Source of the DNA: Echinarachnius parma
Lineage: Eukaryota; Echinodermata; Echinoidea; Clypeasteroida; Echinarachniidae
Assembly: GCA_037951105.1 (NCBI GenBank)
Contig: JBAMJV010003788.1
Span: 186,001-250,000, forward strand
Reading direction: 5' to 3'
Length of the DNA: 64,000 bases
Shown piece after piece: positions 4,859 to 63,555 of this stretch (the first letter of the stretch is position 1; the number at the start of each line of letters is the position of its first letter). The notes under the pieces are model-generated. The model saw only the letters and a list, made by a program, of their open reading frames with translations. It was not told where the DNA came from and did not search any database. The position numbers and the translations under genes were made by a program.

Positions 4859-4860
4859 CA

Positions 4861-10658: not shown

Positions 10659-10664
10659 TTTATT
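10659..10664 (-). promoter_or_regulatory. AATAAA polyadenylation signal overlapping the stop codon
   Basis: On the minus strand the coding end reads CCC TAA TAAAGC. The hexamer AATAAA therefore starts inside the TAA stop. If used, cleavage 10-30 nt later gives an extremely short 3' UTR. Confidence 0.5.
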
Positions 10665-11007: not shown

Positions 11008-14000
11008 CTGAGGAGAGATTACATACATTGAAAGTATTCCAACGGTGTGTACATTAGCATATTTGAATATAGCATGCATTCCTAACTCGTTAACTCGCTT
11101 GATGATTTGCGGAATAGTGATAAAAGATAAGAATTGTACAGAGATAATTTTGAAGGTGAATATACGTACTTGTTGTTAAGCAGGAAACCCTTGTAAAGTC
11201 AAATATAAAGCTGAGCTAATTTAGGAAATTAGGAATGCACTGCGCACAATGTCGTAGCGTGGTCGAACTGATTGGAGGGCACGAACATTATTAGGGGCAT
11301 ACCTTATGTATTTCTTTATTTAGTGTAAGACCTTCAATTATGTTTTTTTTTTTTTTTTTTTTTGGACAAATTATTGTGGGGGGGGGGGGGGGATTGCAAG
11401 ATGTCAGACCCTTTTCGAAGGGTGAAGTATTTTTGAATATTACTTCGGTTGAATTATAAGAAGTATAACAAGTAATATATCGCAACAAAGATGGGATTAT
11501 GCTATGGAGAATTTAAAAATTCCCAAATCATAAAAATGAAATATTGCGACACACTAGGATATTCTAGTGATTTGATACATTATGGAGTGTTTATGCGCAC
11601 AAACAGACTTAAGAATTTGTGTCAATTTCAATTCTTTTGAGCACCCCTCATATGAACAAAATAGTATCTTTAAAAAAACACATTACTTTTTTTGAAACAA
11701 GATGTGGCTTGTAAGAAATGACTTTGTCATTATTTGCATAAAACCCTTAATAAAAATACCTGACTTATTTCCCTGATGAGAAGGAGATAACCACTGATCC
11801 AGGTCAGACCGAGCAGAACCAAGATGGTGACGGCGTTCTGGATGCGTTCCACCGTCTCCCGTCGCTCGCCATCCTTGTCCTTTCTTACCTTCCCGCTCAC
11901 CCTGGCCGACTTTTCCAGCTGACGGACGACGAGCACGAAGATGACGGCATTGATGATAAGAATGATGGCCACGGGGATCAGGAGCCCACCGATCTGCGAC
12001 CAGAACTTCAGGAAACAACTGCGAACGGGATGATTATGATTTGAGAGAAAAGTTAAAGGGATCTAGTAACTTTGTTGACATGTGCAAAAAGTGATGAATG
12101 GGTAATGCAATGCATATTATTGTTATCTCATATGTCCACAGGGTATTGTGTGAACATTTTAAGTCAAATGGACATTGCATGGCCAAGTAATGAGCAAAAA
12201 TGAAAAATGATATTCAATAACTCACTGCACTCACTTTGTACACAGAAGAAAAACTCGCCCGGAGTTTTTCTTATCTGAATACTTCGATCGTACATATCTT
12301 TGTAACGAAAGGGAAATTTGAAAAACCGAAACCTGTCCCATGATTTTATTGTTAATACGAATACAACAAGGTATGAGGGAACCGCTAGAATGAACAATTT
12401 ATTTTGAGGATTTGGACAATGTTACTAAGTCCCTTTAATCACTAAAATGTTAGGATTTATTCTTATTTCAAAAGGATTATAATTATGTACTATGCAAAAC
12501 CAACCTGAATTAGTATCACTAAATTTGTGATTTATATACATTAAGAAATATATAATGCAGTTAAAAAGATGAAGGTGACTATATACCAACCTTTCAGTGC
12601 CTAGAAGGCAATCAACACGCATTAACCTTAAAAAAATAGGTAAACAAACAACATTTTAATGAACAGGTCTTGAGTTGACACTGCATAATTGTCAATAGGA
12701 AACAATCAGTGCACTTACATTTGCACAGTTAATCAGACAATTCAATTACTACAGGTACTTACATGTCTTCGTTTGCGTAGTTCTTGTTGGCTATGGCTCC
12801 GGTTAGGATGACGATTAAGGCGGGAATACCTAATAATGAAACACATACAATAATACTAATTTATGATAGAGCATAAACTATCCCTTGCATATTTCATATT
12901 TTCTTTACCAACAAAAAACATGACCAAAAAGCCTGTCTATCAGTTTGCCGGAGCTACTACTTCTACTGCAACATAAATGGACAAACTCACCCCAAGCAGC
13001 CATGGCCGCCTTGACCATGAAGTTCGGGACGTAGGAGTTGAGAACACGGACGAGAAGGAGGTACATATTCACCCCCTCGACGCCCATCCAGGCAATGGAA
13101 GACAGAACGAAGTAGTGAACGAGCGCCGCCAGCAGCCCGCATGCGCCAGACATGACCTCGGCTTCGTTCCTCATCGTGTCTACCCCGACCATGACGAGAT
13201 AGGTGACGTAGAGACAGAGCAGTGTGACGCACAAGCAGATGAAAATCTGATGGGTCTGGCGACTCCGAAGTTTACTTTATTTACAGAATGAAAACAAAAA
13301 ACGAGCAGGAAGAGTGTAACACAAGGTAAATATGTATGTATGCATCTTTGAATTCATTGAAGTTGCACAAAGTGTGAACAAGATGTCATCTCTGAAACGT
13401 CTCTTATCGCACGTAACCCAACCATAATAAGAAACGTAGCGTATCGACAGCGTGACACACATATGGATTTTAGAGTGTTCCATCCGCAGTTATTTTATTC
13501 AGTATGAAATATCAAAATTAACCGAGTAGTATGTTACTTTTTGATTCCCATAATTGCAGACGAAACGGATGAAAGTACATTATCCTATCATGCCTATTGC
13601 ATCCATCAAATTATGCCTCAAGTATATATGTACTTTTAACGTACAACATCTCCCATGTCTGTATAAAGACATATATTCTTCATCAATGTTTTACGAATAA
13701 CGCAAAAGGCCTACTTCTGTTACTGTGACCCAAAAGAACAGCCAGTGAACATTTCTGTTCAACCCGTTCGCACCTTTGTTATCTAAAGTTGTTAGTTTTA
13801 GAAATCGATAGTTAATGGTTCACAAAACCATAACTTAATGGAGCGAACTGTAACATATACATTAAGTTGTATTACATGTATTTGATTGGAGGATTCGACG
13901 GCTCGAGCTGTGGAATAGGTAGCTGTTTGAGCCATTGGTGAAGGTGTTCATCTTGTTAAAGTTGATTTTGTTGTTGTAGTTGTAGCAGTATTTGTTGTTG

Positions 14001-17000
14001 TTATACATTAGTCAAGCTAATGAAAAGGGTTCGAAGCTTGTGTTGTGTTGTGAAGGTTTACAAGATTAGAATGAGGTTTGGCTAACAAGTTATTATTTGG
14101 CGATCACTTGCTGGGAAATAACAATGCGATTAATGTTTTACAAACATAAATATTCTTGTAAAATCAACTTATATTCGAGTATAGCAATTACCTCTCTTTA
14201 TGGGAGAACCTTTTCTCAAGTAACATGATTTAGTAGTTAATGTTCATTACTTTTAGAACATTATAATCAGGGGCGCTCGATATGGGGAATACATGAATTA
14301 TGAATGATGCCCAAGGGGCTATTCCACTAATGGTCGGGCAATAATCTTCACCCTCCCTGAACATATTTTAATCATATTTCATCCATTATCATTTACCTGT
14401 TCCACAGATAATTGGCGAGTGTGATGACCAGACACACTATGGATATTGCGCACCCAATGTAGCTCAGTACACTGTATGTAAGCACTGGAGGTGATTGGTA
14501 GATATCCTAACGAAAATAAATAATAATGCCACAGAAAAGGTGTCAAAATAGTGCTGATAAAAACTATTCATTATCCTAAAGCAACATCTGATTATTTCAT
14601 AAATAATATCGGTGATGATATTCGTTTGTCTCGTAATGTATGGTCAACAATGAATTTAAATATTACCTACGTTTCGTGCGCCGCTGCAAATGTGATTATT
14701 TATTATAAACAAAACCAACACAGACTTAAATAATAATGATAGTTTCTTCAAAATGTAATGTCCACCGACAATTTTGAACTATGGTGAACAACCTGAAACC
14801 TGTATTGGCATAATGATGTGTTCTTTCCCCTATAATTTCTAGCAAAATTGTAAATTTCGAGTTCACTCTCAATTTATATTATACAAGCAGAATACAATAA
14901 ATGGAACATAGAAATGCACATATCGTATAAACAACCACTATACCTATATTAGTTATGTAAGTATATACCTAATTTATTGTTTAATCTGTCCAGGTCTGGT
15001 CCTGAGAATACTCTGGTTTGGGTCTATGGAGAATACATGTTATGTCAAAATCAATCAGTCCTGAACGGGTTATTCAGCGATTATGTACAGTTACTGAACG
15101 GTATATTGATACAGTAACACTTTGATAATTACATCATACCATAAGCACAGCAAAGTTGGTGGCATGATTACACGAGCAGGTGTACGTCTCTCTTGAGGGG
15201 TGCTCACTGTTCTCATTGTCCGGTGCAGTCGTAGTCCTTGGCATCAGTTTGCAACCGCGCGAAGACCAGTCGTTGGTTGTAAAATCCCAGAACACGCACG
15301 TCTGATTAATATAGCCAGGCTGTAGTTTGGACAACGGAAAGGATATTATATAAACTTATTCACGGTCAACGCATTATGAAACAAATGTTGAATAGGACTA
15401 TATCAATTATTCATAGTAATTATATAACATAAAAACTATTTAAAGAGATGTTTTGCCGTAACCGTTATAGGCAATGGAATTAGCCCCTTCCGGTCAAGAT
15501 AGTGGCAGTGGTGCTTTTATTGATGGTGTGTGAGTTTGATCGTGGGTGTGCGTTTGTTTGAGTGTGTGTTGGTGTATGCGCCACTATCACATTATCAATG
15601 TGTACTTGGTAAGAATCGAGGGTGCGTAACTATGAAAGCATGTTTGCACACTTTAAGTAGCACTGGCTGGAATGATTCAAGGGAGTTCGCATCAATTAAT
15701 TAATATGGGACCGGAGAAAACACACTGAAGAGTCTAACCTGGGTAAAACAAACAAACAATGATATTTTTGTTACCTCCAGCGCCGTGAACGTGAGGTTGA
15801 TTGGCCGCGCGAGGTTCTCCACCACTCGACCAGCGAAGCTGAGGGCTATAACGGGAGTGTTTGCCGTGCGGTTCAACTCGGCGTTCGTCTGGCTGAAGTT
15901 ACGCACCGAAGGCGAGATGAAGAGAGACGGTGTCGCGTACACGTTCATGATCACCCTGATGTTGGTATCAGCAGTCCCGTTGCCCTGGTTACCATCTGAT
16001 GGTGACGAGACAATGGCTGCGATCTCTGGAGGAATGCTCACCTATATTAGAAGAGACATATATTTGCCATGATTAAAAACTGAAAAAATGTATGTTTATA
16101 ATGTTGTTCATGTCTTCATTATATCATGTTTTTGTCTAAGTCAGGTTTCAAGGATGATAGTTGATGGCAAATATTTGTGTTGTGTTCAAAACATGCAGAA
16201 ATGAACTTTTGTATGATACCTCAAAACAAACGAACTTATTTTAGATTCATCAAGAAGAAAATTGTAAATCGTAAAAAGAAAGCGATATGGGAAATTTAGG
16301 CTATATACGAAAACATACAATTGTTTGTTCAATATGTGATTAGTGGTGAGACTTTTTGCTAAAATCACACAAGTCTTAGGAGTACTATCAAATAGCATGA
16401 ATATTAATTTCAGACAATTTCAGTGACAATATACATATATATTTTTTGTAAAATAGATTCATTGCAGTATTATTTATCTGGCAAATAATGTTAAACCTCA
16501 CGTAAGATAATCATTGGCGAAACATAACAATTGTAATGGATAAGTACCTGGACAATCAATCCCTGATTCTCGTTACCAACGTTCTTGTCGTCGATCATGT
16601 CTACGGTGATGTTGGTGCGGGAAAGGTCCGATGAAGAATCTCCCGTGACGGAGAAGACGAGACCCTGGTCGAGATCTGACGGGGGCACGCTTTGCACCTG
16701 GATAGCAATGGTACAGTGTATGTAATGTATTTCTAGACAGCATTTCCACAGGTCAGCATAGTTACTAGATCAACTGACTGACCCGTATTCTCGCGTCTAA
16801 GTCCCGTTAAACTGAACTCACTTAACCTCTCGGTTAGGTCCTGATTACATTAAGTCAGTTGTGAGCAAAAATTGGATAGTCTGAAGTCATGTATCATGTC
16901 CTAAGCTAGGTCTTGTATACCCTATATATTTGTCTACATTCCTACTTAGTTATGTAAAAGGCCAATCTAACTTTAGTCAAGACATTGTGACTAAATGTGT

Positions 17001-20000
17001 GCTATTCAGTGTTTACTGGTTTAGTTTTGTTATACCTGCACGATAACGCTTTCCTCCGCTATTTTAAGGGGACTCCCTACTTCGACGACGACGTTTTCGA
17101 GTTGGTTTTCGAAGGCCTGCACGATGCCAGATACGGAATTGTCATTCTCCTGCGCAGCTTCCAGTTCACTTTGGTCAACCATAGCGATGTTGCTGACGAT
17201 ATTAGTTACAGATCTAGTCACCTGTTCAAAGGGAAAGATGCAAAATAAACAAGATAAATATGCAGGATTAAAAAGTCCACTGAAGAACTGAAAAAATGTT
17301 TGTGTTTGATACCCAAATAAACTCAAATAAATCAACAATAATTTGATTAATAAGACATTTTTGTTTTTATGAAATGGTTCTAAGTAAACTAAAAAAATGA
17401 ATATATTTTGACATGGCACGTTTCGAAGCTCCTGTTCTAGAAGTTAAAAACTAACTAAATAGCTTACATAATTCACTAACTGACTAACCAACCAACCAAC
17501 CGAATAATCACACAGACCACCAACAACCAGCCAGCAAATATAATTATACAAACAAGAAACAGCTAGCCAAATCTACCAACTAAATAACAGACCGACATCA
17601 GTCAATCGACCAACCAACCAAAGTTTTCACTATTATTATGACACATACGGGTAAATCGTCGTGTTAGATTTTTTTCACAATAACTCTATTAAATTTGTGT
17701 TCTTATTCTTTTTAAACAAACACACACAAAAAAACACACAAACAAGCAAACAGGCAAAACAACACATACAGTTACGAACCAAGCAACTCATGAAACAACC
17801 ATCCAATAAAGCATTACGGACTGATTACTCACCTCCTGATCACCGGAATTCTGACTGACGATATCATTTGCAATACTGCCGACCGTGGAGATGTCATCTG
17901 ACGTTATCTCCATCGTGTTGCCTGTGACTATTGCAAGTTGGCTTGTTACTTCTTCTACGTTGCTGTCCGAGATTGAAACCTTTGGTTGGTGTAAAATTAA
18001 ACAATAATACAGACGATGTTGCGATCATTGAATAGGTATTTTACTGAGTATCCAGAATGTCTAGGTTTTAGTCAAATGTACCTCCATGTAGCAGACCAAA
18101 ACAAATAATAGAGGGAACTTCTTCATCGTGATTCCTCTCTACGCGCAACAGTTCTATAATTATGGCAAGTTCCAAACTAACTTTGCTTAAATAATAACTT
18201 TTTTCGTGTAATTATTTATGTCTCGTCCATTGTCATAATTGTAGTTAAAATGTATACAATTTATCTTATGGTGTCATTGCCAACACATGTGAGTATGATG
18301 GCTAAATAAGTACGTTGGAGCCCCGTACCCGCGTAAATCATTTGGTATGTAAAATGATTGAATATTGAAGACATTGCAACGTTTTAGTTTAAGGAGCGCT
18401 TGGACAATAACAAAGTTACGAAAATTCAAACCCCTTTCGAAAGAAAAAACACTCTTTTGCAAGATAAACAGTTACTTTTAGTTTTGAAATAAACATTAAA
18501 AGTTCACCTCGTCCAGTTCTTCGAGCAGTTCTGAAACGTTCCTGAATGGACCGCAATTGTCAATAGGTCTCCAGCTGGCCTGGCTGATTCTATCGCCGAC
18601 ACACTGGGCACGGGCAACTGGCTGGTGAGCTATAGTATACAATGATAATGTTGATATCATTTAATCAACGGTTCATTTTAATGAGTAGAGAACATTATTT
18701 GCTAATAGTAAGATGTTAAAGAGAAAAATAAATTGGCAACAATACTATAACTCATTCATAAGCCAGATAAACAATAAGATCTTATTTCCAAAAGGTGCTA
18801 AATCCACTTTCCATAGCAAATGAGTTAACGATATCAACGCATTGATAAGCTACGTAGCTTTCTAGAAATCGACATTTTAGGACGAATCAATCGATCAAAA
18901 TCAAAATATGAAACGTTGTATTTTCATATTCCCATAAGCATGTGCACGAAATTAGACAAGAAACCTGATTTTCTCCGTAATTGAAAAAGTGGGTTTAGCA
19001 CCTTTCGGAATTAAGCTCATTATACAAACTACAGGCTTTCCATTTTACTGTAAGCTTACTTAAATACTATTAGGTTCATATTCAAAGCTGGGTCGACATA
19101 TGCCAGTTAATGGTTTGGGATTAGGCTATCAGATTACATGCCCGTTCCAAAAGGTCAACTCACCATTCGTTGTGTTGAAAGGACACTTCATTGTCGAGTT
19201 GGTCCACGAGTTCAATTCCCCATTCTCGAAGGAGACTCGTCCAAATCTCGAATTCCACTCGATTCCATAACAAATCGCTGCAATATAATAGATCAGTATC
19301 AGAGGAAATGAATTACAATATATTGTAATTAATATACAAACATACTTCAATACAGACAACAAAACATTTTAACAAAACATTTTGCAGTAGTGTAAAATGC
19401 GGATAATCTGTATGTAATCAATCGTATGAAAACAAAATCGAAAAATGGGGATACATAGAGCCCCCTCCCCCCCCCCCCCCCCATCATAAACAAATAATGT
19501 AATACAAGCAATTAACAACATGAGAGTAAGTCTTTTCACAAGATATAGAAACATGTATAAAAAATAGCGTGCCTAGCGGAACCATTGTGTGCCCCCGTCC
19601 TAATCAATCCGACCACGGTACGCTACTGAAAGGCGAAGTCTTACATGTGGAGGTGATAGTGCTTTGTGATAAGTCAAGCAGGCTACCCAGCGAGGCAGCC
19701 AGTGATTGGAGAGATGATGTCACGAGGTCTAGAAGAGCGATCGATGACGTGTTCGCCCAGGCGACAAAGAATATGTTGAGGTCAACGATCACGCTTCCTG
19801 GTCTAAAATTTGAGGGGATGACGGTCGCTGACAAGCTGGAGATGTTCTGAAGTCCGTTTTGAATCTGCAAGAACAGAGGATATACAGATTGTCAAGGCCT
19901 GATTGCGCGCACTGCATAACACTGAGCCAGTGTATATTTCACAACTTGCGCAAGGCATTCGCAATACGGCACCACGCGATTATAAATGAACTGCTCCCAT

Positions 20001-21783
20001 AATTACCCTTGGATTTCATATTACATCAATGCCTTCCCTCAATCATTTGTAGATACCTCCCCCCCCCCCCCTTATAGAGATTCTTATTGATTATAAATGC
20101 AGCAGGATATTATTCATTAACTGTCCCTGGATCTAAATATGTTAATGTATCGCGCGATGAGGTCATTACTCACAGTGTTCGTGATATAACTACTCGCTTC
20201 CATGTAAGCTGCTGAGTTTGGGTTAGACAGATCCTCCGGTGATGATATGGTGATGTTGAAAGTAGCATTTCTGACCTGAACTGTAGCCAAATCTACATCA
20301 AAATGAAGTACAATACAAAACAATATAATACAGTCAAACCTGCTTATAACCTCTGGTCCTCCCCTGAAAAATCATGTGTTAAACGACCTGCCTAACGCGA
20401 CCAGCGACCTCCCCATTTGGGTCCCGACGCACGTATAAACCTGTGTATAGCGACCGAAAGATACCGCCTGAGCGATCAAGGCATCAATGCGGTGATCTAT
20501 GGTCGTGCAAGGCTCCAATTCTGAGCATGTCAACACAAACTTTTTAAAAATGACAGTGAACTTCAGACGGACGCTTGATAACAGACACCAAGTGCTTCAT
20601 ACTCATACACGAAGAGTATTTGTGCACTTCACTCCAGTACCCAATGCTGATACAGAAATGCGTAAAACAAATGCACTTCACTCAACATCACAACCAATTC
20701 ATCAATGCCATCTAACAAATATTTTAACATTTCCCTTGTAGTTCTTATTCTTTTTCAATGGTAATCAATGCGCTTGTTTCGACCAAACAATGCATTTTGT
20801 CTTCATAATTTTATAGAAACTATACACCTGCGCATTTAAAAGTGCAGTTGATTCTCATAAGTTTCATGATGAGTAAACAAATGACATATTGACACATTGT
20901 AACATTTTAATTGCACGTAAAAAGATAACACAAACATTTAATATCATTTGAAATAATAATATATAATAATAATACATAATTTCAATTCTCGTTTTGTTAT
21001 GCATGCAAAAAATATCGACACGTGTGCGTACAGATGCCTATAAATTACCCATCTGTATATAGGCACAATTCATGAGACCAGAAATTAAAATTGGCCGCCA
21101 ACCTGTCTAATGTGACCACCTGTTTATAACGACCACTTTTTGCCGGTCCCTTGAGTGGTCGCTATAGACATGTTTCACTGTAAAATACTCATTACAATAC
21201 TACTCAATACGGTTTAAACAAACAACAATACAACGTCGCTGGGCAAGTAAAAGGACAAATTGACGGTATCGATAGCAAAAACAGATGCATACTTTTTTTT
21301 TAAGAAACAACATTTTAGGAAATTATTTTTTCCAATTGCGTTACTCAGTAACAATGTTTAGTGAAAAAGTTACGTAGGCTTTAATGATACCAAGTCGTTT
21401 AATTTGGCGTATGCTCAGTTCTTTGTAATGGAGTTAATACGCATTCCTTTATTGGTCTTTATTGTACGCCGATAATTAATGCGCCGATATCATGCATGCA
21501 GAAAGGACAAAATGCAATTGCCCTTTTACTCGCATTGACAATGCAGAGCTAATGCGCGCGATTTGACAGTTATTAATGGGCAGCAATAATGACAAAGAAG
21601 AAGAAAAATAAGAAGGAGAATGAGAAGGAGACGGAGATGGAGAAGGAGGAGAAGGAGAAGGAGAAGGAGAAGAAAAAGAAGAAGAAGAAGAAGAAGAAGA
21701 AGAAGAAGAAGAAGAAGAAGAAGAAGAAGAAGAAGAAGAAGAAGAAGAAGAAGAAGAAGAAGAAGAAGAAGAAGAAGAAGAAG

Positions 21784-22322: not shown

Positions 22323-24272
22323 CCTTTGATGTAGAGTGCCGCCTGGTTCGTTACTGCTCTGTCCTGGTTGCCACCCATGCCTACACACCGGTAGTAACCG
22401 ATATCCCTCGGGGTCATCGATGGTATGGTAAGGAAACCTTCGTTCTGTGTCCCAGAAATTGAAACATTGTCCTTCTGCCACTGAAAGCTCACGGCATTGT
22501 CGAAGCTACATAAGAGTATGACCCTGTCAAAAAGACCCACCGTCTGACTGCGCGGGGAGGTAATAACTTCTACTGGCACTATGAGAAAATGTATTAATGA
22601 TTATCATGTTAATAATATAACGTTTTATTTACCCCGAGTATAGCCACTTCAGTGACAAACACTGGTTTTCCGGCTTCCAGCAGGCCAAGCAAAATTATGT
22701 GAAATTAAGGCGTATTACACTTATTCGATACTTGAATGACAGACACATGACTGGGAGTCCGTAGGTAGCATTTGTTTTCTTCTACCAATGTCTCTGAGCC
22801 ACATGTCCGGTATCAAAGAATATAGACAATTTTGTCATTCCTTAATCATACTTGGCTTGTAGGCCAAACTCACATCTTCATCGATATATTTTAGTGTGTC
22901 AGAGGTTTCGGTTTGGGGGACCTTTACAGCTCGTTGTAACAACCCAAGATAGAAAACAGTAAAACTAATTATGAGTGAGGGGGTTTAGATTGCAATTTGT
23001 GGACGTTTGTTCCATATGTTGATAACGCTTTGACTGAAATTTGTTTTCCTGACTTCAAATTTGCGTCTGTCCTTGATAAGTTTCATGGAATGGCCTCTTT
23101 TTGTTGGTATCCTCATATCTGGAAAAAGTTGTCTGGTTTTGTTTTGTCCACCCGTGTCATAACCATAGTCCATGCTGTAGACTCTATTATTAATATTTTC
23201 TAGAATCTCTCCTTATAATTCACTACAAACATGATGGCACTTGAACACGCAACGTCCGTCTCCAGCCGCTTTTCTCAAGATGAGCACATCGCTCAATCCT
23301 GTTGGCTTAGTGCCATCAATTGCTGTTATCGATACATGTATAGGGTAAACGTGATAAATAGAGTCGAGAATCCCGACTAGTTTAGTCCTAACAATATCAA
23401 ACTACAAATGTACATGATCTTTGCATCTTCTTTTTGTTGAATTAGGAATTGAAAATGTGTAATGTTGAAATTATATCAAGCATGTAAGGGTTGTTCTGAC
23501 TCATCTTACTTACGAGTATACAATAGAGTCACAAACCAGCAAAATGTTGACTTTGTTGACATAAGAGTAAATGGTTACCATGATTACATTTTCATTTGAT
23601 CGATCGGTACTTGAACATCAGCAGACGCACACGAATCAATTAATTATAGTATAGAGGATACAGTTATGTGTTTATTATTCATTAGCTACTGTGCTATGTT
23701 CTTTATCTGTTTGGTAACACAACAAAAAATAAACGAACGTTACACTGATCTATAATTGTCCAAATACACAACATTTACTTGGAAATCTAGCGGTTCTCTC
23801 ACACCTTGTATTCATATTAACAATACATGTATACGCATTGGACAGGTTTCGTTTTTTTCCGAATTTCCCTTTCCTTAAAAATATTTGTGCGATTGAAGTG
23901 TTCGGATTTTTAACTATCAACTGGATAGTGATACCGTGTACAAAGTCAGTGCAATGTCATCTACATTTCTGCTCACTTCTCGGCCATATAACATCCATTT
24001 AACGTGAAATTTTCACAAATTACTGGTGGACATATCAGATCACAAAAATACACTTTGTATCGAGCAATCATCACTTTTTGCACATGTCAACAAAGTAGGT
24101 AGATCCCTTTAATAAACAAATGATGCTTTCAACTCACTGATGGGAGCATTCATGTTGATATCGCAGTTGACGCCATCCCACTGGTCATCGCACATGCATT
24201 GATAACCCACTCCCTCTCTGTTCACACACCGTCCATTTTCACAAGGGTTTGATGTGCATGGTTCAGGAATTA
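10663..24272 (-). CDS. Adhesion G-protein-coupled receptor (EGF-Ig-SEA-HRM-GAIN-7TM), 16 exons, 5' end not included
   Basis: Sixteen exons join without a frame break into about 978 codons. Domains in order from the EGF: EGF-like (six Cys), one Ig-like domain, SEA with an intact GSVIV site, hormone-receptor motif, GAIN ending in a GPS with four Cys and HAT, seven membrane segments, then a ~95-residue cytoplasmic tail. SEA-HRM-GAIN is the order known from ADGRG6; Ig plus SEA recalls ADGRF5, so the subfamily is left open. Such receptors sit in the plasma membrane, sense matrix or cell contacts, and signal through a tethered agonist exposed at the GPS. The exon set starts mid-codon, so more N-terminal exons exist. 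The CUB/LDLa exons at 43.4-63.6 kb are the obvious candidates. Exons are visibly richer in GC than the introns. Confidence 0.85.
11760..12018 (-). CDS. aGPCR exon: TM5, intracellular loop 3, TM6
   Basis: Begins one base before a codon boundary and ends in phase 0 (AGTCAG|GTATTT). TM5 is IPVAIILIINAVIFVLVV. Loop 3 is strongly charged (KVRKDKDGERRETVERIQN). TM6 carries LLGLTWISGYLLL, a match to the family's GLTW signature. An overlapping longer frame here is a shadow. Confidence 0.9.
12053..12438. mobile_element. MITE with TTAA target duplication, intronic
   Basis: Ends are TTAAAGGGATCTAGTAAC and, inverted, TTAAAGGGACTTAGTAAC. TTAA target duplications are typical of piggyBac- and Kolobok-type elements. 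It lies in the intron between the ECL2 and TM5 exons. A related right end occurs at 24,072-24,114. Confidence 0.6.
12763..12829 (-). CDS. aGPCR exon: TM4 end and extracellular loop 2
   Basis: Small 67-bp exon (2+63+2) with acceptor CATTATTAG and donor AT|GTAAGT. Codes for IPALIVILTGAIANKNYANE; the split codon to the next exon gives EDICFL, which contains the loop-2 Cys expected to pair with the TM3 Cys. Confidence 0.88.
12991..13262 (-). CDS. aGPCR exon: TM2 to TM4 start
   Basis: 272 bp (1+270+1). TM2 is IFICLCVTLLCLYVTYLVMV. TM3 follows GAC (the conserved Cys) and contains WMGVEGVNMYLLLV, matching the family's WMxxEGxxxY pattern. The acceptor after CTTCGGAG was chosen because it alone completes the split Ser codon and keeps RQTHQ in frame. 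Confidence 0.88.
14397..14506 (-). CDS. aGPCR exon: TM1
   Basis: 110 bp, phase 0 start, two bases over at the end, donor GGAACAG|GTAAAT. After DIYQSPP comes a hydrophobic stretch (VLSYIGCAISIVCLVITLA) that forms TM1 directly behind the tethered-agonist exon. Confidence 0.88.
15140..15319 (-). CDS. aGPCR exon: GPS cleavage motif and tethered agonist
   Basis: Sixty codons, phase 0 at both ends. Carries all four GPS Cys (TCVFW, RGCKL, CSC) and ends TCSCNHATNFAVLM. Cleavage would fall between Ala and Thr of HAT (Thr at 15,158-15,160), releasing TNFAVLM as the tethered agonist. The usual residue before Thr is Leu; Ala is a mild deviation. An insert-like Thr/Asn/Glu-rich stretch lies between the Cys pairs. 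Confidence 0.92.
15775..16041 (-). CDS. aGPCR exon: GAIN subdomain B, middle
   Basis: 89 codons, phase 0 both sides (TATAG|GTGAGC to CTGGAG|GTAACA). Contains SPSVRNFSQTNAELNRTANT and RPINLTFTALE, the beta-rich part of GAIN-B with N-glycosylation sites. Confidence 0.85.
16548..16697 (-). CDS. aGPCR exon: GAIN domain
   Basis: 50 codons, phase 0. Peptide VQSVPPSDLDQGLVFSVTGD continues to NENQGLIVQ. Donor CAG|GTACTT, acceptor CTATCCAG. Confidence 0.8.
17036..17221 (-). CDS. aGPCR exon: GAIN subdomain A/B junction
   Basis: 62 codons, phase 0. Amphipathic helices such as VTRSVTNIVSNIAMVDQSEL, then GIVQAFENQLENVVVE, as in the helical GAIN-A region. Acceptor TTTGAACAG, donor CAG|GTATAA. Confidence 0.82.
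17833..17979 (-). CDS. aGPCR exon: GAIN subdomain A
   Basis: 49 codons, phase 0. VSISDSNVEEVTSQLAIVTG and IANDIVSQNSGDQE are helix-like and follow the HRM exon directly in frame. Donor GAG|GTGAGT. Confidence 0.8.
18508..18629 (-). CDS. aGPCR exon: hormone-receptor motif, second half
   Basis: 122 bp (2+120). HQPVARAQCVGDRISQASW, then PIDNCGPF, fits the C-terminal half of the HRM (ARAxC...W...C), and leads into an acidic helix (VSELLEELDE) starting GAIN-A. Confidence 0.82.
19164..19277 (-). CDS. aGPCR exon: hormone-receptor motif, first half
   Basis: 114 bp (2+111+1). ICYGIEWNSRFGRVSF, then NSTMKCPFNTTN. The split codon to the next exon forms Ala. Acceptor ATTGCAG, donor ATG|GTGAGT. Confidence 0.82.
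19645..19864 (-). CDS. aGPCR exon: SEA domain, second half with GSVIV site
   Basis: 220 bp (219+1). IQNGLQNISSLSATVIPS leads to FRPGSVIVDLNIFF. GSVIV matches the SEA autoproteolysis consensus GSVVV; cleavage would fall after Gly at 19,796-19,798. Donor ACAT|GTAAGA, acceptor TTCTTGCAG. Confidence 0.88.
20174..20280 (-). CDS. aGPCR exon: SEA domain, first half
   Basis: 107 bp (2+105). VRNATFNITISSPEDLSNPN, then SAAYMEASSYITNT, the typical SEA opening strand and helix. Donor ACT|GTGAGT. Confidence 0.85.
20331..21180. mobile_element. pogo/Tigger-like MITE in the Ig-SEA intron
   Basis: Starts CAGTCAAACCTG after TA and ends with TGTTTCACTG before TA. The subterminal TTATAACC/GGTCGCTATAGACA sequences are inverted relatives. 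CAGTNNAACC ends with TA duplications are the pogo/Tigger pattern. No transposase is present. Confidence 0.65.
21590..21845. repeat. (GAA)n then (GTA)n microsatellite, intronic
   Basis: A degenerate GGA/GAA lead-in, about fifty pure AAG triplets, then GTA/AGT triplets. It reads TTC on the transcribed strand of the receptor gene. The poly-Lys, poly-Arg and poly-Leu frames are artefacts. Confidence 0.95.
21851..22243. mobile_element. Short element with GGTGGGGGTACCAAACT ends
   Basis: The left end GGTGGGGGTACCAAACTGCG and the right end, inverted, GGTGGGGGTACCAAACTTCG bound about 390 bp. A third CCAAACTTCGCGCAG copy lies at 22,052-22,068. Both outer sides are AGT/GTA triplet arrays. Confidence 0.6.
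22244..22323. repeat. (AGT)n microsatellite touching a splice donor
   Basis: About 26 triplets. On the minus strand it begins GTACTACT directly after the Ig exon, so its first GT is the donor itself. Confidence 0.93.
22324..22578 (-). CDS. aGPCR exon: Ig-like domain
   Basis: 255 bp (2+252+1) coding for one complete Ig domain. First Cys in VILLCSF, core Trp in VSFQWQKD, second Cys in DIGYYRCVG, closing strand QAALYIK. Acceptor TCTCATAG. The donor is G|GTACTA and merges with the triplet repeat. Confidence 0.88.
22985..23173 (-). pseudogene. LINE (CR1-like) C-terminal remnant
   Basis: The frame includes RGHSMKLIKDRRKFEVRKTN, then FSQSVINIWNKRP and a stop. This is the Cys-poor C-terminal end found in non-LTR retrotransposon reverse transcriptases (RGHxxKL...R...FS.RV...WN.LP). 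It lies in the EGF-Ig intron and the body of the element is missing. Confidence 0.65.
23174..24137. other. Intron between the Ig and EGF exons
   Basis: AT-rich. The only feature seen is the right end of a TTAA-type MITE (CAACAAAGTAGGTAGATCCCTTTAA, to 24,114), related to the element at 12,053-12,438. Confidence 0.5.
24138..24272 (-). CDS. aGPCR exon: EGF-like domain
   Basis: 135 bp (2+132+1). Six Cys in the EGF spacing: PCTSNPCENGRCVNREGVG, then QCMCDDQWDGVNC. Acceptor TTTACTTTACAG, donor ATCA|GTGAGT. The exon starts with TA, so one base comes from an upstream exon; the last LDLa exon at 43,456 ends with a single A, which would give Ile. Confidence 0.9.
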
Positions 24273-24435
24273 CTGTAAAGTAAAACAAAATCAAATAACA
24301 TAACATGGGCCCGTATGAACGATTGGAAGTTAAAATTCATTGTAAGTCGCACATTTTTCGAGTTTCAACGAATCAGATTTCCGCAGTTAGAACACATGAG
24401 CGTTATACCGACAACAGGAAACATACACGTTGATG

Positions 24436-24554
24436 TCATTGTACAATTATATTGGCAGTTAAGGCATCCTTTTGGTGATGCTGGTGACATGGTCCTCCTC
24501 TATTGACACAACGGGCATTATCAGAAGGGTTCGATGTGCACGGTCCATGAAGTA
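24436..24554 (-). pseudogene. Decayed duplicate of the EGF exon
   Basis: Begins like the intact exon (GTAG|TACTTCATGGACCGTGC), then GPCTSNPSDNARCVNRGG matches it closely. One Cys has become Ser, the remaining Cys spacing is lost, a one-base deletion shifts the frame (GGATGCC against GGATGGC), and no donor is left. It sits about 165 bp upstream of the intact exon, as expected for a tandem exon duplication. Confidence 0.75.
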
Positions 24555-24652: not shown

Positions 24653-24683
<31 letters not shown>

Positions 24684-33107: not shown

Positions 33108-33142
<35 letters not shown>

Positions 33143-55000: not shown

Positions 55001-58000
55001 TATTCATATGCGCTGTAAACGAATTTCACGTCCATATGTGACGCATCACGTTGTAACGACGTGTGACACAGTAACCAAAGATGCAATATGCTCAAACTTG
55101 GTATCAAACGATGCGCAGGATTCTAGGAAAGACCTCTATGAAAAAAAGAAGCTGGAATCCGCAGTGCATTGTTGTGTAATTGTTCAAGATGTGTGACTGG
55201 GTATTCATGACCCCTAAGGCTAAAACGCACTATTGTATGCATTAGGTGTGATTTTCTTAAAAACTCATCATGTGGACTTCCAGTAGCTAGTTCGCGAGGT
55301 TGTCCACCTAGGTTGTGATCCTAGAATGTCTTAGAAGCCATTTCTGGTGACCAAACTTTTACAACAGGCAAAAGCTGGTAAACCCCATTTGCCCCCTGGG
55401 TAATCACGATTTCAAACATTCCTTACCATTATTATTAAGACTTTTTAAAAGACAGGTGATGCGTTATTTTAAAAGAGAGGTACTTACTACAGTCCTTTTC
55501 GTCTGTTCCATCGTAGCAGTTGAGTTCATAGTCACAGACAGAACTTCCGTTTATCGCAAATTTACGAGCATCGCACACTAAAGGATCTGCGTGATGTGAA
55601 GAATGAAATAACATATTTACAGTGATTAATAGCATGACATGAGGGTCTGCTTGCTATGCATAATGACCGCTGATCATAATTTGAAAAAAGCTTCATTATT
55701 GATAAGGGTTGCTTTTCATAATTACATGACGGCTCCGCTTTTTATAATACGAAATGAGGGTCGCTCTATTCATATTGAAACAAATGGGTCGATATTATTT
55801 CATGAATAGCGACCCTGATTTTTATGAATTATGAATTATTATGAATATTATCTCTCTTCTTACATTATGAAAAGCCACCTGATTTCGTATTATGAAAAGC
55901 GACCCCTTCTTACATTATGAGTATCAACCCCTCCTTAGGATTATGAATAACTATCCTTTTCTTTTATTATGAACAGCGACCCAGACATTGATTTTTGAAT
56001 ATCCCCCTTATTCATGTCCATGAATAACGACTCTCATTTTGTGTTATAAATAGCGACCTTTATATCGTCGTGCATTTCACGAAGTGACACGAACCGGCAC
56101 ATGCATATGCGTGAATATCGCGCGTGCCGGTTCGTGAAATTTTGACTCGAGCGTCGGTGAGTTTCACGAAGTGACACATACCCCCAAATCGTATCTAATG
56201 GCATATATTGAGTTTTATTCATATTGAACACCTATAATTAATTCATGGCCTACCATTTGGCCAATTTGTAGAATTTAATTCTGCTTAATTAATTGAAAAA
56301 GTAAGGTTATACGCGAACCACATCAGTCGTATCAGATTGCGCATGCGCACATGCGTATGTACTATTGTGCGCGGTACGGTTCGTGAAAGCATCACAAAGA
56401 ATTTCACGAATTGACACATACCCAGAAAATCGTATCAAATATCGTAATATATTAAGTTTCTTTTTAGTTGTATTCAATCTTAGCATCTGTAATTCAGCCA
56501 TAGTCAAACATTCAGCCAATTTGAAGATTTGAATTGTGCTCAAATATTGCAAAAATTAAGTTTATATCCAACGGCACCTACCAAAAAAATCCAACTGGGA
56601 ATTTCACGAAGTGACACATCGCGTGCCAGATCGCGCGTTCGATGTTTTCACCTTTTATCTGTCAGATTATTATTAGACACGACATGAACAAGTGGATTCT
56701 CTTCTTTCTTTTCATGTACAATTCATAATAGTACAATAAGTTGTTCATCACGAATTCGCTGTTTGAAAATTCCGAAATCTTTAATTGCGTTTTATTCAAA
56801 ATGTGGTTTCGTGCTTACGCGCACACATGTGTCACTTCGTGAAATGCGCGATGATATGACTCTCATTGTGAACTATGAATTATGAATTGCTAATGAATCT
56901 AACGCATTATGTATGGATTTATGAACATTCATAACATATTTTCTTATATTTGATCACTAAATTATTAATAATGGATGCCATACAAACCTGTGAAATTATG
57001 CACGGTGACTGTGAGTCTAAAACCCGGATATTCATAACTTGGCCTGGACGAGAATTCGACAAACATGTTCTCAGGTGGAAGAAACAATATCCTGGGACTT
57101 CCATAGACGCGGCCATTGAACACCTGGGAAAGAGACGTATTTGAAGGATCCCATCCCGAACCTACAGCCAACCGATCGTAATAATGAATACGAATATATC
57201 CGAAGGAGATCATGTAGAAAGTGTCGGTTGGGTCTCCGGCAGGGTCATACTGGAATGTCCAAAGTACGTAGGTATTGGGTGGGTAGTTCGATGGGTAACC
57301 ATGAGATGCCACACTGAGCACCTTACCTAAGTCCAGAAGACTTCCTGCAGAACAAAAGAGTACGTGATTGGAAAACACATACAAATTTTAACGAAATTCA
57401 AACAAGTTTGAACAAAAGAAAACTGATTTCAGTGAAGACTCTTCCAAATGTTGAAAAAGGAATGCACCATACCTGCATACAAAGTTCACTTCTCAAATAC
57501 TTTGATTTTAGCGTTATATTATTCTATATTATATCAAAATAATAAATACAGTCCACTCCCAAATATTAACTCCAGTTAACGACCATACATGTCTCATTTT
57601 GTTGTAATGATCACATTATGTTAGTATCGTGTTGTATGTAATTTATTTCCAAAATAGGGGATGAACCAGTCTCCTTAGGAATATGAAAGGGAAAATGGCT
57701 AGAATATAATTTTGTTTTGTTACGCATGACATAATATGTAATGCATATATTACAAATATCTAGTGTATGTAAATCTGTCCGCTACCAGCTACGTAATTTA
57801 GGATTCATCCGTAAATATTTGACATGTTCCTCTACCCAGAAAATTGTCCATGCACTCATTTCCTCTCGTTTAGATTTTGGTAATGCCCTAGTTTATTAGT
57901 TGCCCCAGTCCCAACTTACAAAATTACAGAAAACTACAAAATACAGCAGCCCGCATCGTCACACTCACAAAGAAATTCACTCACATCACCCCTGTACTAC

Positions 58001-61068: not shown

Positions 61069-63555
61069 CAGTACGCAAGTGCACATTGTGGGTTACGTCA
61101 ATGGCTATTTGGCGAGGGCATAATATGTACCCTCACACCTTTCTAGCTAAACGCGACACCTACCACAATCTCTTTCATCAGTCCCGTCATAACAATCAGC
61201 TATCAGGTCACAAACCGAGCTACCATTTACGACAAACTTGCTTGCGTCACACACATGTGGATCTGTATATGGAGATAACAGAATTAAGTGTAGTACTATA
61301 CAAATTGCATTTATGGAGTTTTACTCAAACGGTAGTTATACAGGGTGGCCCCAAAAAACGGAACGGGGCACTTCCCAAAATAAAGTAACAAAATGAACAT
61401 GTCCATCGGATAGAAAGTCGTTTCCAATGAACAACGATACCAAGAAAAGTAATTTTGGACGTGTAGTTTTTGTTTCAGGGCGCTTTGAGTGAGACCATGT
61501 CAGGTCCCTATTTTTGTCAATTTTTACCAAGTCAGTGCCTGATAAATGAGACTTACTGCCCGACGTACCATTGAAACCGCGAGTATGCCGCGCGCCATTG
61601 TTAGTGTGCATTCAGCTGTGTGCCGAGCGGTGCCGAGAGAATGGGCATAATTGGTCAATAGTTTGACGGGCAGTAAGTCTCATTTACAAACTCAAAGTTT
61701 GAACGGCTCTTTTTGAATGATAACAGGCTTTTTATTTAGACGTTTATAAGTGTGTATTCATTTTGAGCATAGTGGAGTTATAACTATTAGTTTGTAATGT
61801 AATGGTGCAGGTTTTGGTTACTAAATTTCACTTTGACCAAAACTCTCTTTACCAGAACTCAACTATCCCTTTAATACTTCTTCGAGCCATGACACAGCGA
61901 AGCAAATAGTTACGGTATTCAGACAGGCGTCAATTGTTGGGATGAGTCAACCCTTCCATGAATGTTCGATGTATACCAACGTAGCCTAGCAAACGTCCAG
62001 GTGGTCATTTTATAAACCAACTATAGGGTTGACGGTATTTATTAATATGGGCCCATGAGTATGTTTATTATTTAACATGTTGGGTAGTATTGTTAACCAT
62101 TGGTTATATGTCGTTAATGAGGTATACATTCAAGATTTATTTTGAAACGCAACCAAGCCCATCATTACTACGTTTCTGATCATTCACAATTTGTACTTTT
62201 CTTTGTTTCATTTAACAAATTTTTGTTTGCATAAATACCTGTAAATTTCTGCACAATGATTGTTAGATTGAAACCCTGATTCCGATGCGATGAATTGGAC
62301 GAGAATTCAACAAACATGTCCCCAGATGGAAGGAATAGTATTCTGGGTATTACATTGTCGTTGCCAGTGAACACCTGATATAGAGATGCATTTGAAGGTT
62401 CCCATCCAGAACCGACAGCCACCCAATCGGAATGATGATTATCAAGTTGGATGTGTCCAAACACAATTCTGTAGAAATTGTCAGTTGGGTCTCCTGCAGG
62501 GTCATACCGGAATGTCCACAGAACGTAGGCGTTGGGCGGGTAGTACGATGGATAACTATGAGATGCAAGATGGACGACATCACCAAGGACTAGTGAGAAA
62601 TCTTTACATTGAAAAGGTAAAAACAGAAATATTACTTTCTTGAAATAACCATATCATAAGTTAACAACAACATCAATTTAGAAACAATATAAATTACATA
62701 AATGTTGGTAACATAATCGCTTGTTATATGAAATAAACATTTATTCTTTACATTGCTGACTTTGGCGTATTATGCTGAGCCTCAGTCATTTGTTTGAGGT
62801 ATTAGATTTCTCCAATAATTATTTATCTAGTTGAAGTACTTGAGATTACGATACTGTAGGAAAACATAGATATGATGGTGACTACGTAACTCATGTTCTT
62901 TCCTTTGTTTGCGTGTTTTGGAATGTATTACACCAATGGATCCATGGATCCTGTTTTCAAATGTGTATGCTTGATATTCCGATAATACCTATGAAGGCTA
63001 TTTATATACGCATCTGTTTTTTTCTACAAGGCTCGAGAAGTACTCTTTATTCCCTGGAATTATGTAAACAATACACAAATCTACTCCCCAAGAAATGTGA
63101 TATATAATTGATTTAAGATGGAAAAGTGAAATCTGGTATTAAAACCAAATCAAATATGCTCATATTTTATGCGACAATTTTCAGAAATGTCTTTATATCC
63201 ACGGATTTCAATCTAAGCGTTACTATCACACTGCTAATTTGTTTCAAATTATTCATCATTTTCATTGACAACTATCCGGTGAGGGTAAACTTTCCCTTCA
63301 CCAAACTATACAGGACCGACGACAATAACACGCAATATGTATGTAAGTGCACGCTAACAATAGCAGTGCATTGGTATTTGGCCCAAAATAATTTAGATTC
63401 AATTAAATTTAATGCAAAGGTCTTTAGAAATTACGTATATGTATGAACATACTTACTACAATATTTTTCATCGGTTCCATCATAACAGTCTGGTGCAAAG
63501 TCACATACAGACGTTTTGTTCACCACGAACGTACGAGAATCACAGATAAAATAAT
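43456..63555 (-). CDS. Alternating LDLa-CUB exons of a large extracellular region, both ends incomplete
   Basis: Seven exons in the order LDLa, CUB, LDLa, CUB, LDLa, CUB, LDLa (63.5 kb down to 43.5 kb) join in frame into about 491 codons. Every junction is phase 1, the signature of exon-shuffled extracellular modules. No signal peptide, stop or polyadenylation site belongs to the set, so it continues on both sides. It probably continues right of the window, and at the left probably into the EGF exon of the receptor at 24,272, since phase and strand agree. The modules are atypical: CUBs without Cys and LDLa with four Cys. Several N-glycosylation sequons fit secretion or surface display. An independent CUB/LDLa gene that ends in an unseen exon between 24.6 and 43.4 kb is the alternative. 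Confidence 0.75.
43732..44200. mobile_element. Copy of the TTAAAGGGATAGCTGA repeat family
   Basis: Starts TTAAAGGGATAGCTGAATTT. The end near ATTGTATGCTCTTTCGAATTTGACACTCAG is the inverted match of the inner part of the element at 47,149-47,703. The right terminus is not intact. Confidence 0.5.
44201..45988. other. Intronic, no exon seen
   Basis: Includes a CpG-richer block (44.9-45.5 kb) and a cluster of GGTAC/CGTACCGT palindromes (45,604-45,655), plus GTGTGT/GAGTGAGT repeats near 45.9 kb. The open frames have no domain. Confidence 0.4.
45989..46180. mobile_element. ~190-bp hairpin MITE
   Basis: ATAACAGTTGTCAAC and, inverted, ATACAGTTGTTAAC form the ends. Inside, ATTTTAAATGCTATTTCGGGAAGA pairs with TCTTCCCTCAATAGCATTTAAAA around a short loop at about 46,085. 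Confidence 0.75.
46722..47084 (-). CDS. CUB exon 3
   Basis: 363 bp (2+360+1). The CUB core is visible as SHNYPSNYPPNAYALWTFRY, then DLFVEFRSDSSYQYQGFSL. None of the four canonical CUB Cys is present (the Cys before the core Trp is Ala). Less like the other two: the AVGSG block is replaced by LNIGEDL. Acceptor ATGATGCAG, donor ACAG|GTAATG. Confidence 0.88.
47149..47703. mobile_element. TTAA-flanked MITE, ~550 bp
   Basis: TTAAAGGGATAGCTGAG at the left, CTCAACTATCCCTTTAA at the right. TTAA targets point to piggyBac- or Kolobok-type mobilisation. Relatives lie at 43,732 and 61,700-61,874. Confidence 0.7.
48990..49072. repeat. (TG)n microsatellite and G tract
   Basis: About 28 TG dinucleotides with CG interruptions, then an 11-base G run at 49,062. 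Confidence 0.93.
49210..50271. mobile_element. Complete foldback MITE, 1,062 bp
   Basis: The left end AACCCCTCAACAAAAGTTCGG and the inverted right end carry the same sequence with a longer A run; TA lies outside both. Nearly the whole element is a palindrome (for example GGGGCGATTGCAGTAGCCCAG against CTGGGCTACTGCAATCGCCCC). Same family as the element at the window start. It lies inside the 7.1 kb inverted-repeat region. Confidence 0.9.
51243..53442 (-). pseudogene. Non-LTR retrotransposon (CR1/Jockey-group) ORF2, broken
   Basis: The upstream frame begins in the end of the AP-endonuclease (SDHNIVSFTFSG), then the linker and reverse transcriptase: RPISLTCICCKVMEH, DFRKAFDRVPHQHL, SGVPQGSVIGPTLFLLYIND and FADDSVIY (catalytic box at 52,048-52,059). 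The frame stops after LADWSTKWLC at 51,949. Coding continues in another frame from about 51,955 (SLTISRKHKP...YLGVTVSKDLRW...YGSEAWNPYN) to TAG at 51,243, so a small deletion joins the two. A further stop interrupts the endonuclease just upstream (near 53,477). Inactive; clade not assigned. Confidence 0.88.
53443..54944. other. Decayed LINE 5' part and unassigned sequence inside the 7.1 kb element
   Basis: The first ~100 bases continue the endonuclease reading with a stop. Beyond that the frames are broken. The minus frame at 54,060-54,377 (105 codons) has His/Cys-containing stretches but no motif I can name. Confidence 0.4.
55488..55586 (-). CDS. LDLa exon 3
   Basis: 99 bp (2+96+1). LVCDARKFAINGSSVCDYEL, then NCYDGTDEKDC. 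Four Cys, an NGSS glycosylation sequon, and acidic Ca-site residues retained. Acceptor ATCACGCAG, donor TGTA|GTAAGT. Confidence 0.9.
55640..56061. repeat. Degenerate minisatellite (ATTATGAATAGCGACCC type)
   Basis: About a dozen irregular ~25-40 bp units with the core TATGAA-AGCGACCC (for example 55,798, 55,891 and 55,971). The array resumes after the element at 56,062-56,857 (GACTCTCATTGTGAACTATGAATTATG). Confidence 0.75.
56062..56857. mobile_element. 796-bp TIR element with repeated ATTTCACGAAGTGACAC boxes
   Basis: The ends ATATCGTCGTGCATTTCACG and, inverted, ATATCATCGCGCATTTCACG. The 17-bp box occurs at 56,074, 56,161, 56,401 (variant) and 56,601 on the + strand and inverted at 56,829. Multiple subterminal boxes resemble transposase-binding arrays. 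No protein is encoded. Confidence 0.75.
56988..57344 (-). CDS. CUB exon 2
   Basis: 357 bp (2+354+1). SHGYPSNYPPNTYVLWTFQY, then YYDRLAVGSGWDPSNTS and ENMFVEFSSRPSYEYPGFRL, a clear CUB fold pattern with the YD acidic residue kept. No Cys at all. Acceptor GTTCTGCAG, donor ACAG|GTTTGT. Confidence 0.92.
57780..58515 (+). pseudogene. L2/CR1-like LINE 3' end
   Basis: Reading across a few stops gives LQNTAARIVTLTKKFTHITP, LQTLHWLPIDQRVKFKILLL, HCIHGSAPSYN and WNELPQHIRN, ending at a stop at 58,317. This is the conserved C-terminal region of L2/CR1-type ORF2. The sequence then reaches GGCGCATTACAAGACCGC and a (TTA)n tail (58,488-58,505), a typical 3' terminus. It is 5'-truncated within the LDLa2-CUB2 intron. 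Confidence 0.85.
58723..59862. mobile_element. Foldback MITE with CACTACTCACAAAA ends
   Basis: CACTACTCACAAAAAGTAA at the left and TTTTGTGAGTAGTG at the right, TA on both sides, 1,140 bp. The arms are complementary almost throughout (CATACCATTCAT, GTAGTACTGAATTACATAACAG). A C15 tract sits in the left arm only. Confidence 0.85.
59863..61163. other. Intronic, no exon seen
   Basis: AT-rich to 60.3 kb, then a GGGAGGGTGTGGGAGGGAG patch (60,430-60,460) and poly(C)/poly(G) runs at 60,637-60,658, 61,016-61,027 and 61,036-61,054. Confidence 0.45.
61164..61262 (-). CDS. LDLa exon 2
   Basis: 99 bp. PHVCDASKFVVNGSSVCDLI, then ADCYDGTDERDC. Four Cys. Acceptor CCATATACAG, donor TGTG|GTAGGT. Confidence 0.9.
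61339..61690. mobile_element. Fragment with mariner-like CAGGGTGGCCCCAAAAA end
   Basis: CAGGGTGGCCCCAAAAAACGG follows TATA. The block with GTCCATCGGATAG, GGGCGCT-TGAGTGA and TAAATGAGACTTACTGCCCG recurs in related form at 63,756-64,000. Ends of this kind are frequent in Tc1/mariner elements. Confidence 0.5.
61700..61874. mobile_element. Right end of a TTAAAGGGATAG-family MITE
   Basis: GCTCTTTTTGAATGATAACAG through CTCAACTATCCCTTTAA matches the right half of the element at 47,149-47,703. Confidence 0.6.
62239..62601 (-). CDS. CUB exon 1
   Basis: 363 bp. SHSYPSYYPPNAYVLWTFRY, then SDWVAVGSGWEPSNAS and GDMFVEFSSNSSHRNQGFNL. No Cys. Very similar to CUB exon 2 (shared DPAGDPTD and PRILFLP), so the LDLa-CUB pair was probably duplicated as a unit. 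Acceptor TGTAAAG, donor ACAG|GTATTT. Confidence 0.92.
62602..63456. other. Intron between LDLa1 and CUB1
   Basis: AT-rich; no repeat or exon recognised. Confidence 0.5.
63457..63555 (-). CDS. LDLa exon 1
   Basis: 99 bp. YFICDSRTFVVNKTSVCDFA, then PDCYDGTDEKYC. Four Cys and an NKT glycosylation sequon. Acceptor CCTTTTGTAG, donor TGTA|GTAAGT. It starts with two bases of a split codon, so another exon lies further upstream, right of the window. Confidence 0.9.

What the first reader, a model, noticed from the sequence alone, without database searches (positions are those of the whole stretch)
10663..63555. One giant adhesion GPCR with a (LDLa-CUB)n-EGF-Ig-SEA-HRM-GAIN ectodomain
Seen: 16 receptor exons and 7 LDLa/CUB exons on the same strand, all in frame, with no stop, start or polyadenylation site recognised between them. 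The LDLa exon ending at 43,456 leaves one base and the EGF exon at 24,272 needs exactly one. Known: ADGRG6 has an N-terminal CUB and SEA-HRM-GAIN. Inference: this is one gene with an expanded, still open-ended CUB/LDLa array, an architecture I do not know from described receptors. Caveat: phase 1-1 modules always match, so phase is weak evidence.
Basis: partly seen in the sequence, partly recalled or inferred. Interest (0 to 1): 0.85.

Follow-up and report, generated by a model that had tools for sequence, protein, structure and literature searches.

The report
Adhesion GPCR with CUB-LDLa ectodomain array
An animal cell-surface receptor gene carries, in front of its usual parts, a long chain of two alternating small binding modules, and related copies elsewhere in the same genome show that chain and receptor most likely form one very large gene.

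Summary
In detail: 23 exons at the stated coordinates on the minus strand, 7 LDLa/CUB exons (all phase 1-1) and 16 receptor exons (986 codons, no stop). Pfam finds CUB x3, LDLa x4, EGF, Ig, SEA, HRM-like, GAIN/GPS and 7tm_2.

One gene is the best reading, because paralogous loci in the window's own genome repeat the order. In C361 an alternating CUB-LDLa array leads through two EGF-type exons into the receptor: 49 exons, 3,453 codons, no stop, with 216 bp between the last cbEGF exon and the receptor EGF. C8664, C5372 and C4583 are collinear as far as fetched. C5391 and C7108 showed no CUB/LDLa in the 10 kb fetched.

Features that could have split the gene were tested. The stop after the last LDLa lies in an odd donor, GTTAAGTAT, that recurs inside other arrays. 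The ATG before EGF is not conserved. A stop-containing EGF copy is decayed. One signal-peptide-like exon in the gap lies in a repeat and is not fully excluded.

The window copy lacks four exons present in C361, leaving a 19-kb gap. The 5' end was not found and no RNA was seen. A second array on the contig leads into a MUC4-like gene instead.

The parts
63457..63555 (-). LDLa1 exon, phase 1-1, 99 nt
62239..62601 (-). CUB1 exon, phase 1-1, 363 nt
61164..61262 (-). LDLa2 exon, phase 1-1
56988..57344 (-). CUB2 exon, phase 1-1
   Evidence: low-confidence fold model matches CUB structures
55488..55586 (-). LDLa3 exon, phase 1-1
46722..47084 (-). CUB3 exon, phase 1-1
43456..43548 (-). LDLa4 exon, 93 nt, phase 1-1, donor GCA|GTTAAGTAT
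24273..43455 (-). 19,183-bp gap, inferred to be one intron; lacks the last CUB-LDLa pair and two cbEGF exons that C361 has here
31176..31272 (-). signal-peptide-like ORF with a weak phase-1 donor inside a dispersed repeat; rival start, judged chance
24439..24554 (-). degenerate duplicate of the EGF exon: acceptor kept, frame broken, donor lost, in-frame stop
24138..24272 (-). EGF exon, phase 1-1
22324..22578 (-). Ig exon, phase 1-1
20174..20292 (-). SEA exon 1, phase 1-0
19645..19864 (-). SEA exon 2, phase 0-1, holds FRPGSVIV
19164..19277 (-). HRM-like exon 1, phase 1-1
18508..18629 (-). HRM-like exon 2, phase 1-0
17833..17979 (-). GAIN exon 1
17036..17221 (-). GAIN exon 2
16548..16697 (-). 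GAIN exon 3
15775..16041 (-). GAIN exon 4
15140..15319 (-). GPS exon, CSCNHATNFAVLM
14397..14506 (-). TM1 exon
12991..13274 (-). TM2-3 exon
12763..12829 (-). TM4 exon
11760..12018 (-). TM5-6 exon
10663..11007 (-). TM7 and C-tail exon with stop; AATAAA overlaps the stop codon

Best explanation
The 23 exons belong to one gene for a very large adhesion GPCR of the form [signal peptide not found]-(LDLa-CUB)n-EGF-Ig-SEA-HRM-like-GAIN/GPS-7TM. The array has 5 CUB and 6 LDLa exons in the stretch seen (3 and 4 in the window) and may go on. Likely working, inferred from the domains: the glycosylated array reaches out and binds matrix or cell-surface partners; the SEA (FRPG/SVIV, like the GSVVV self-cleavage motif reported for ADGRF1/5 SEA domains) and the GAIN (HAT, canonical H-X-S/T) give two self-cleaved joints; pull or ligand on the array removes the N-terminal part and frees the tethered agonist TNFAVLMDIY... 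to switch on the 7TM. Shown here: exons, frames, domains, collinearity in paralogues, purifying selection on both halves. Inferred: transcription as one mRNA, cleavage, ligand binding, force sensing.
For: Exons and phases; domains; solved relatives of the receptor part: ADGRL3 1.3e-46, ADGRG2 8e-44, ADGRG6 3.7e-42. Collinear loci: C361, alternating 16 CUB/16 LDLa, two EGF-type exons, EGF to TM6, 49 exons, 3,453 codons, 0 stops, TM7 exon open at 178,627-178,974; C8664, CUB/LDLa, EGF-cbEGF, EGF, SEA2, then contig end; C5372 and C4583, CUB and a degenerate LDLa before EGF. Seven array exons match C361 one to one in the same order; dN/dS array 0.265 (0.202-0.364, 491 codons), receptor 0.38 (0.281-0.544, 864 codons). 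LDLa4 donor: 3 of 11 bases match the U1 complement in the normal register, 10 of 11 shifted by one, the only such site of 3,801 GT on the minus strand; GTTAAGT[A/G]T is on 9 of 41 LDLa exons of four arrays, and the 8 outside the window are each followed by a further CUB exon. ATG before EGF not kept in C361, C8664, C5391. No strong unassigned coding exon in the gap on the minus strand.
Against: No transcript. The junction intron, 19,183 bp, is the largest of 22; the next is 8,403. The window gap lacks four exons that C361 has there, so this locus may be rearranged. The LDLa4 donor is the weakest by the usual model, scored with the window's own donors. One signal-peptide-like ORF (31,272-31,176, donor score 0.8) scores as high as 1 of 60 Markov versions of the gap; it lies in a repeat also found in a C361 array intron. 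C5391 and C7108 show no CUB/LDLa in 10 kb. In C1912 a CUB hit and the 7TM hits are on opposite strands. By hand count of the printed lists only 5 of 40 contigs with array hits also carry a listed 7TM hit (both lists are capped). The second array on this contig leads into a MUC4-like gene, so arrays are not tied to receptors. The exon picker favoured phase 1-1 by 4 bits and was told to allow GTTAAGTA.
Confidence: 0.8

Rival explanations
1. Two neighbouring genes: a CUB/LDLa gene that ends after LDLa4 or at the decayed EGF exon, and a separate receptor that starts with its own signal peptide in the gap.
For: TAA directly after LDLa4; decayed EGF exon with a strong acceptor and a stop; signal-peptide-like ORFs at 31,272-31,176, 28,096-28,024 and before EGF; 19-kb gap; arrays exist in a non-receptor gene.
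Against: The same donor works inside other arrays; decayed EGF copy also in C5391 and without its donor; ORF before EGF not conserved; no such ORF found in the C5372 and C4583 gaps at donor score above 0; C361 leaves no room for a boundary.
Confidence: 0.12
2. The family is one gene elsewhere, but this copy is broken in two: the 19-kb repeat-rich gap has separated a once joined array, and the halves are now decaying or used separately.
For: Four exons lost next to the junction; gap full of repeats and palindromes.
Against: All 23 exons open and dN/dS against C361 well below 1 on both halves; the loss of phase 1-1 exons keeps the frame.
Confidence: 0.08

Closest known systems
ADGRG6 (GPR126)
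   Same: CUB in front of SEA-HormR-GAIN-7TM; 7TM/GAIN part matches at E 3.7e-42
   Different: One CUB, a pentraxin and no LDLa, EGF or Ig (passages of PMC11475505; PMC6954182); no pentraxin match here; that paper calls ADGRG6 specific to jawed vertebrates
Amphioxus adhesion GPCRs with LDLa, CUB and I-set domains
   Same: Same kinds of domain reported in adhesion-GPCR N-termini (passages of PMC2246102)
   Different: The passages name the domains singly; the figure with the order was not seen, so an alternating array there is neither shown nor excluded
ADGRF1 and ADGRF5
   Same: SEA with a GSVVV-type motif before GAIN (passage); Ig domains in ADGRF5 (recalled)
   Different: No CUB/LDLa array (recalled); 7TM matches the ADGRL/G chains better than ADGRF1
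Enteropeptidase and TMPRSS6
   Same: CUB next to LDLa; best solved matches of the array (9nrc 1.2e-7; enteropeptidase 0.013 to 0.11)
   Different: Membrane proteases, no 7TM; CUB with cysteines (recalled)
Neighbouring MUC4-like gene on the same contig (C3787:90-146 kb)
   Same: Same CUB-LDLa array and the same EGF-cbEGF exons behind it
   Different: Goes on into EGF_CA, NIDO, VWD and a MUC4 C8-3 match instead of a receptor

Membership tests
Adhesion GPCR (class B2) | 7tm_2 fold family | tested here: met
   E 1.6e-38, full profile 3-250 of 250; adhesion GPCR chains lead the list of solved relatives
Adhesion GPCR (class B2) | GPS/GAIN directly before TM1 | tested here: met
   GPS E 9.2e-12; HAT fits H-X-S/T (motif from the abstract start of PMC13062082 in a listing); GAIN subdomain A only weakly matched, E 0.0011
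Adhesion GPCR (class B2) | autoproteolysis and tethered agonist | not testable with these tools
   motif only
ADGRG6 | N-terminal CUB | tested here: met
   three in the window, five with the fetched flank, all without cysteine (37 of 38 over four arrays)
ADGRG6 | pentraxin domain | tested here: not met
   no match at E up to 1 in the assembled proteins or the scanned minus strand
ADGRG6 | SEA and HormR before GAIN | tested here: met
   SEA E 6.5e-6; HRM-like through GPR128_N, E 5.1e-5, below its curated cut-off
ADGRG6 | calcium site in CUB | tested here: inconclusive
   by eye the Asp of F-x-S-D-x-S is present in CUB3 but not CUB1 or CUB2 (alignment); no structural test
ADGRG6 | orthology of the 7TM | not tested
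   no tree; no animal proteomes on hand

The most novel reading that the evidence does not exclude
The CUB-LDLa-cbEGF half is an exchangeable cassette: one set of tandem exons is joined, by exon shuffling along a tandem cluster and perhaps by splicing between neighbours, to either a MUC4-like protein or a family of some 19 adhesion GPCR loci, giving receptors with fast-changing ectodomains of different array length, as in a recognition or immune repertoire.
Probability: 0.12. Interest if true: 0.8.

Novelty: new variant of a known kind. Interest (0 to 1): 0.5.

Why it matters
It adds an adhesion GPCR with a long alternating CUB-LDLa array, in a locally expanded family (19 loci share the TM7 exon at 69% identity or more, window included). 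It shows an N-terminal half shared between a mucin-4-like protein and a receptor side by side on one contig, a direct case of domain shuffling through phase 1-1 exons. It also gives a natural series of duplicated exons that keep an atypical GTTAAGTAT 5' splice site, which fits shifted pairing with U1 and could be tested.

Tried and rejected
Rejected: termination after LDLa4 (donor recurs inside arrays); terminal EGF exon at 24.5 kb (homologous to EGF, score 104 against 31 at most in 200 shuffles, indels break the frame and the donor is gone; no AATAAA seen by eye between it and the EGF exon); ATG before EGF as the start (for C5372 and C4583 the pattern of that script failed and the in-frame TGA was read by eye from the printed sequence); signal-peptide ORF in C8664, which is an EGF-cbEGF exon whose conserved part begins at the acceptor; signal-peptide ORF at 31.2 kb (repeat), not fully excluded. 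An exon at 20.5 kb was considered and left out (Ig joins SEA exon 1 in phase without it).

Led nowhere: tRNA and Rfam gave nothing; the start of the array was not found: candidates at 254.6-290 kb of the contig are no better than on the other strand, and C361:102-105 kb holds no CUB/LDLa match. Paper searches for this architecture gave only the papers cited; most subscription papers are not held. The wish to count last-pair and cbEGF exons genome-wide was not met. The species is unknown to me.

Not done: Pfam was not run on the minus strand at 1-5,305 nor on the plus strand outside 24,001-43,601. Only 10 kb upstream was fetched for C5372, C4583, C5391 and C7108. No tree was built.

Full report
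What is there. The window (C3787:186001-250000 of a 1.2-Gb genome in 14,790 contigs) holds on its minus strand a 16-exon receptor, 24,272 to 10,663, 986 codons without a stop, and upstream of it seven alternating LDLa and CUB exons, 63,555 to 43,456, each phase 1-1. The receptor part matches ADGRL3, ADGRG2 and ADGRG6 chains best, the array TMPRSS6 and enteropeptidase CUB-LDLa regions. The array goes on past the window edge: 5 CUB and 6 LDLa in 229-272 kb of the contig.

Oddities of the modules. Over four arrays (38 CUB, 41 LDLa exons found by models built from the window's own exons), 37 of 38 CUB exons have no cysteine and 38 of 41 LDLa have four; the three others have 3, 3 and 5, and the two with 3 are 51-nt exons whose acceptor my picker may have misplaced. 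CUB and LDLa alternate at 75 of 75 neighbouring pairs. A model of CUB2 from three sequences is of low confidence (mean pLDDT 63), yet the leading matches to it are CUB structures, with TM-scores around 0.5-0.6.

Is it one gene? Within the window, phases agree but prove little. Two exons around the gap raise doubt. LDLa4 ends in GCA|GTTAAGTAT, the weakest of 22 donors (leave-one-out -1.13; two thirds of all GT sites score as well), and without splicing TAA follows. Yet shifted by one base it matches the U1 complement at 10 of 11 positions, unique among 3,801 GT sites on that strand. Shifted and bulged U1 registers are described in a review of which I saw passages (PMC9311317); that GTTAAGTAT is the classical example is recalled, the original paper was not held. 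The telling fact: the same donor stands on LDLa exons within C361 (1), C8664 (2) and the second C3787 array (5, plus one GTTGAGTAT and one CUB exon), each followed by more module exons. So it most likely splices.

Paralogues. C361 has 16 CUB and 16 LDLa exons in the fetched stretch, then EGF-cbEGF (153,238-153,468), cbEGF-cbEGF (154,602-154,844), EGF (155,061) and the receptor, all + strand. The chain of 49 exons reads 3,453 codons without a stop. Its TM7 exon was missed in 167-175 kb and found open at 178,627-178,974, so the last intron is about 11.6 kb. C8664 has the same order until its contig ends, with about 1 kb between the two halves of its second cbEGF exon and a run of N where Ig would be. 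C5372 and C4583 have the last CUB and a degenerate LDLa before EGF and are close to each other, 91.7% over about 1 kb, so they are hardly independent. C5391 has cbEGF and a decayed EGF copy but no CUB/LDLa in 35-45 kb; C7108 has nothing in 27-37 kb. Thus 5 of 7 loci examined, window included, show CUB upstream on the same strand.

Selection. Array exons match C361 exons one to one in order. dN/dS is 0.265 (0.202-0.364) for the array and 0.38 (0.281-0.544) for the receptor; dS differs (0.31 and 0.153), which may reflect gene conversion in the receptor half.

Results against. The window gap of 19,183 bp has none of the four exons that C361 has there. With a donor score above 2 the only signal-peptide-like exon in the gap is the decayed EGF's. 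With a score above 0 two more appear; the better one, 31,272-31,176, reaches a score seen in 1 of 60 Markov versions of the gap, but it lies in a repeat with a copy in a C361 array intron, and scores of 42.6 and 47.4 occur in other noncoding stretches. Arrays also occur without receptors: the second array of this contig leads through the same EGF-cbEGF exons into EGF_CA, NIDO, VWD and a MUC4 C8-3 match. In the capped lists few array contigs carry a 7TM hit, and in C1912 the strands differ.

Working. SEA FRPGSVIV resembles the GSVVV motif named for ADGRF1/5 (passage of PMC6954182), and HAT fits the canonical GPS motif. Two self-cleaved joints below a long binding array suggest tension- or ligand-driven release of the tethered agonist. 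This is inference. In ADGRG6 the CUB folds back on HormR through a calcium site; the cysteine-free CUBs here, two of three lacking one of the acidic residues by eye, need not do so.

Known or new. LDLa, CUB and Ig domains in adhesion GPCRs are reported from amphioxus (passages). I found no description of an alternating array in the papers searched. I call it a new variant of a known kind.

Noticed in passing
C3787:90,001-146 kb (L029-L033, L039), outside the window: A second CUB-LDLa array (15 CUB, 16 LDLa) on the same strand leads into EGF_CA repeats, NIDO, VWD and a MUC4 C8-3 match: a MUC4-like gene sharing its N-terminal half with the receptor family.
   Followed up: partly
43,447-43,456 and LDLa exons in C361, C8664, C3787B: Atypical GTTAAGTAT donor kept on duplicated LDLa exons (9 of 41, plus one GTTGAGTAT and one CUB exon).
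   Followed up: yes
24,439-24,554: Decayed duplicate of the EGF exon; a similar degenerate copy lies 5' of EGF in C5391 (about 35,620-35,685).
   Followed up: yes
C5372 against C3787: 7TM exons 97-99% identical but Ig 58% and EGF 66%: a mosaic that suggests gene conversion or exchange of ectodomains.
   Followed up: no
51,246-53,475: Minus-strand LINE-like element with a reverse transcriptase (RVT_1 2.9e-30) inside the LDLa3-CUB3 intron.
   Followed up: no
33,901-34,197: Plus-strand open frame with coding-like codon use (LLR 18.9) in the gap, no Pfam match.
   Followed up: no
5,522-8,443 and 8,491-10,612: Tandem duplication of a stretch of about 2-3 kb downstream of the receptor, in pieces 80-93% identical.
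   Followed up: no
36,945-37,322: Palindrome with arms 97% alike in the gap; also a CTT array at 32,796-33,208.
   Followed up: no
10,660-10,670: AATAAA overlaps the receptor's stop codon (CCCTAATAAAGC).
   Followed up: no
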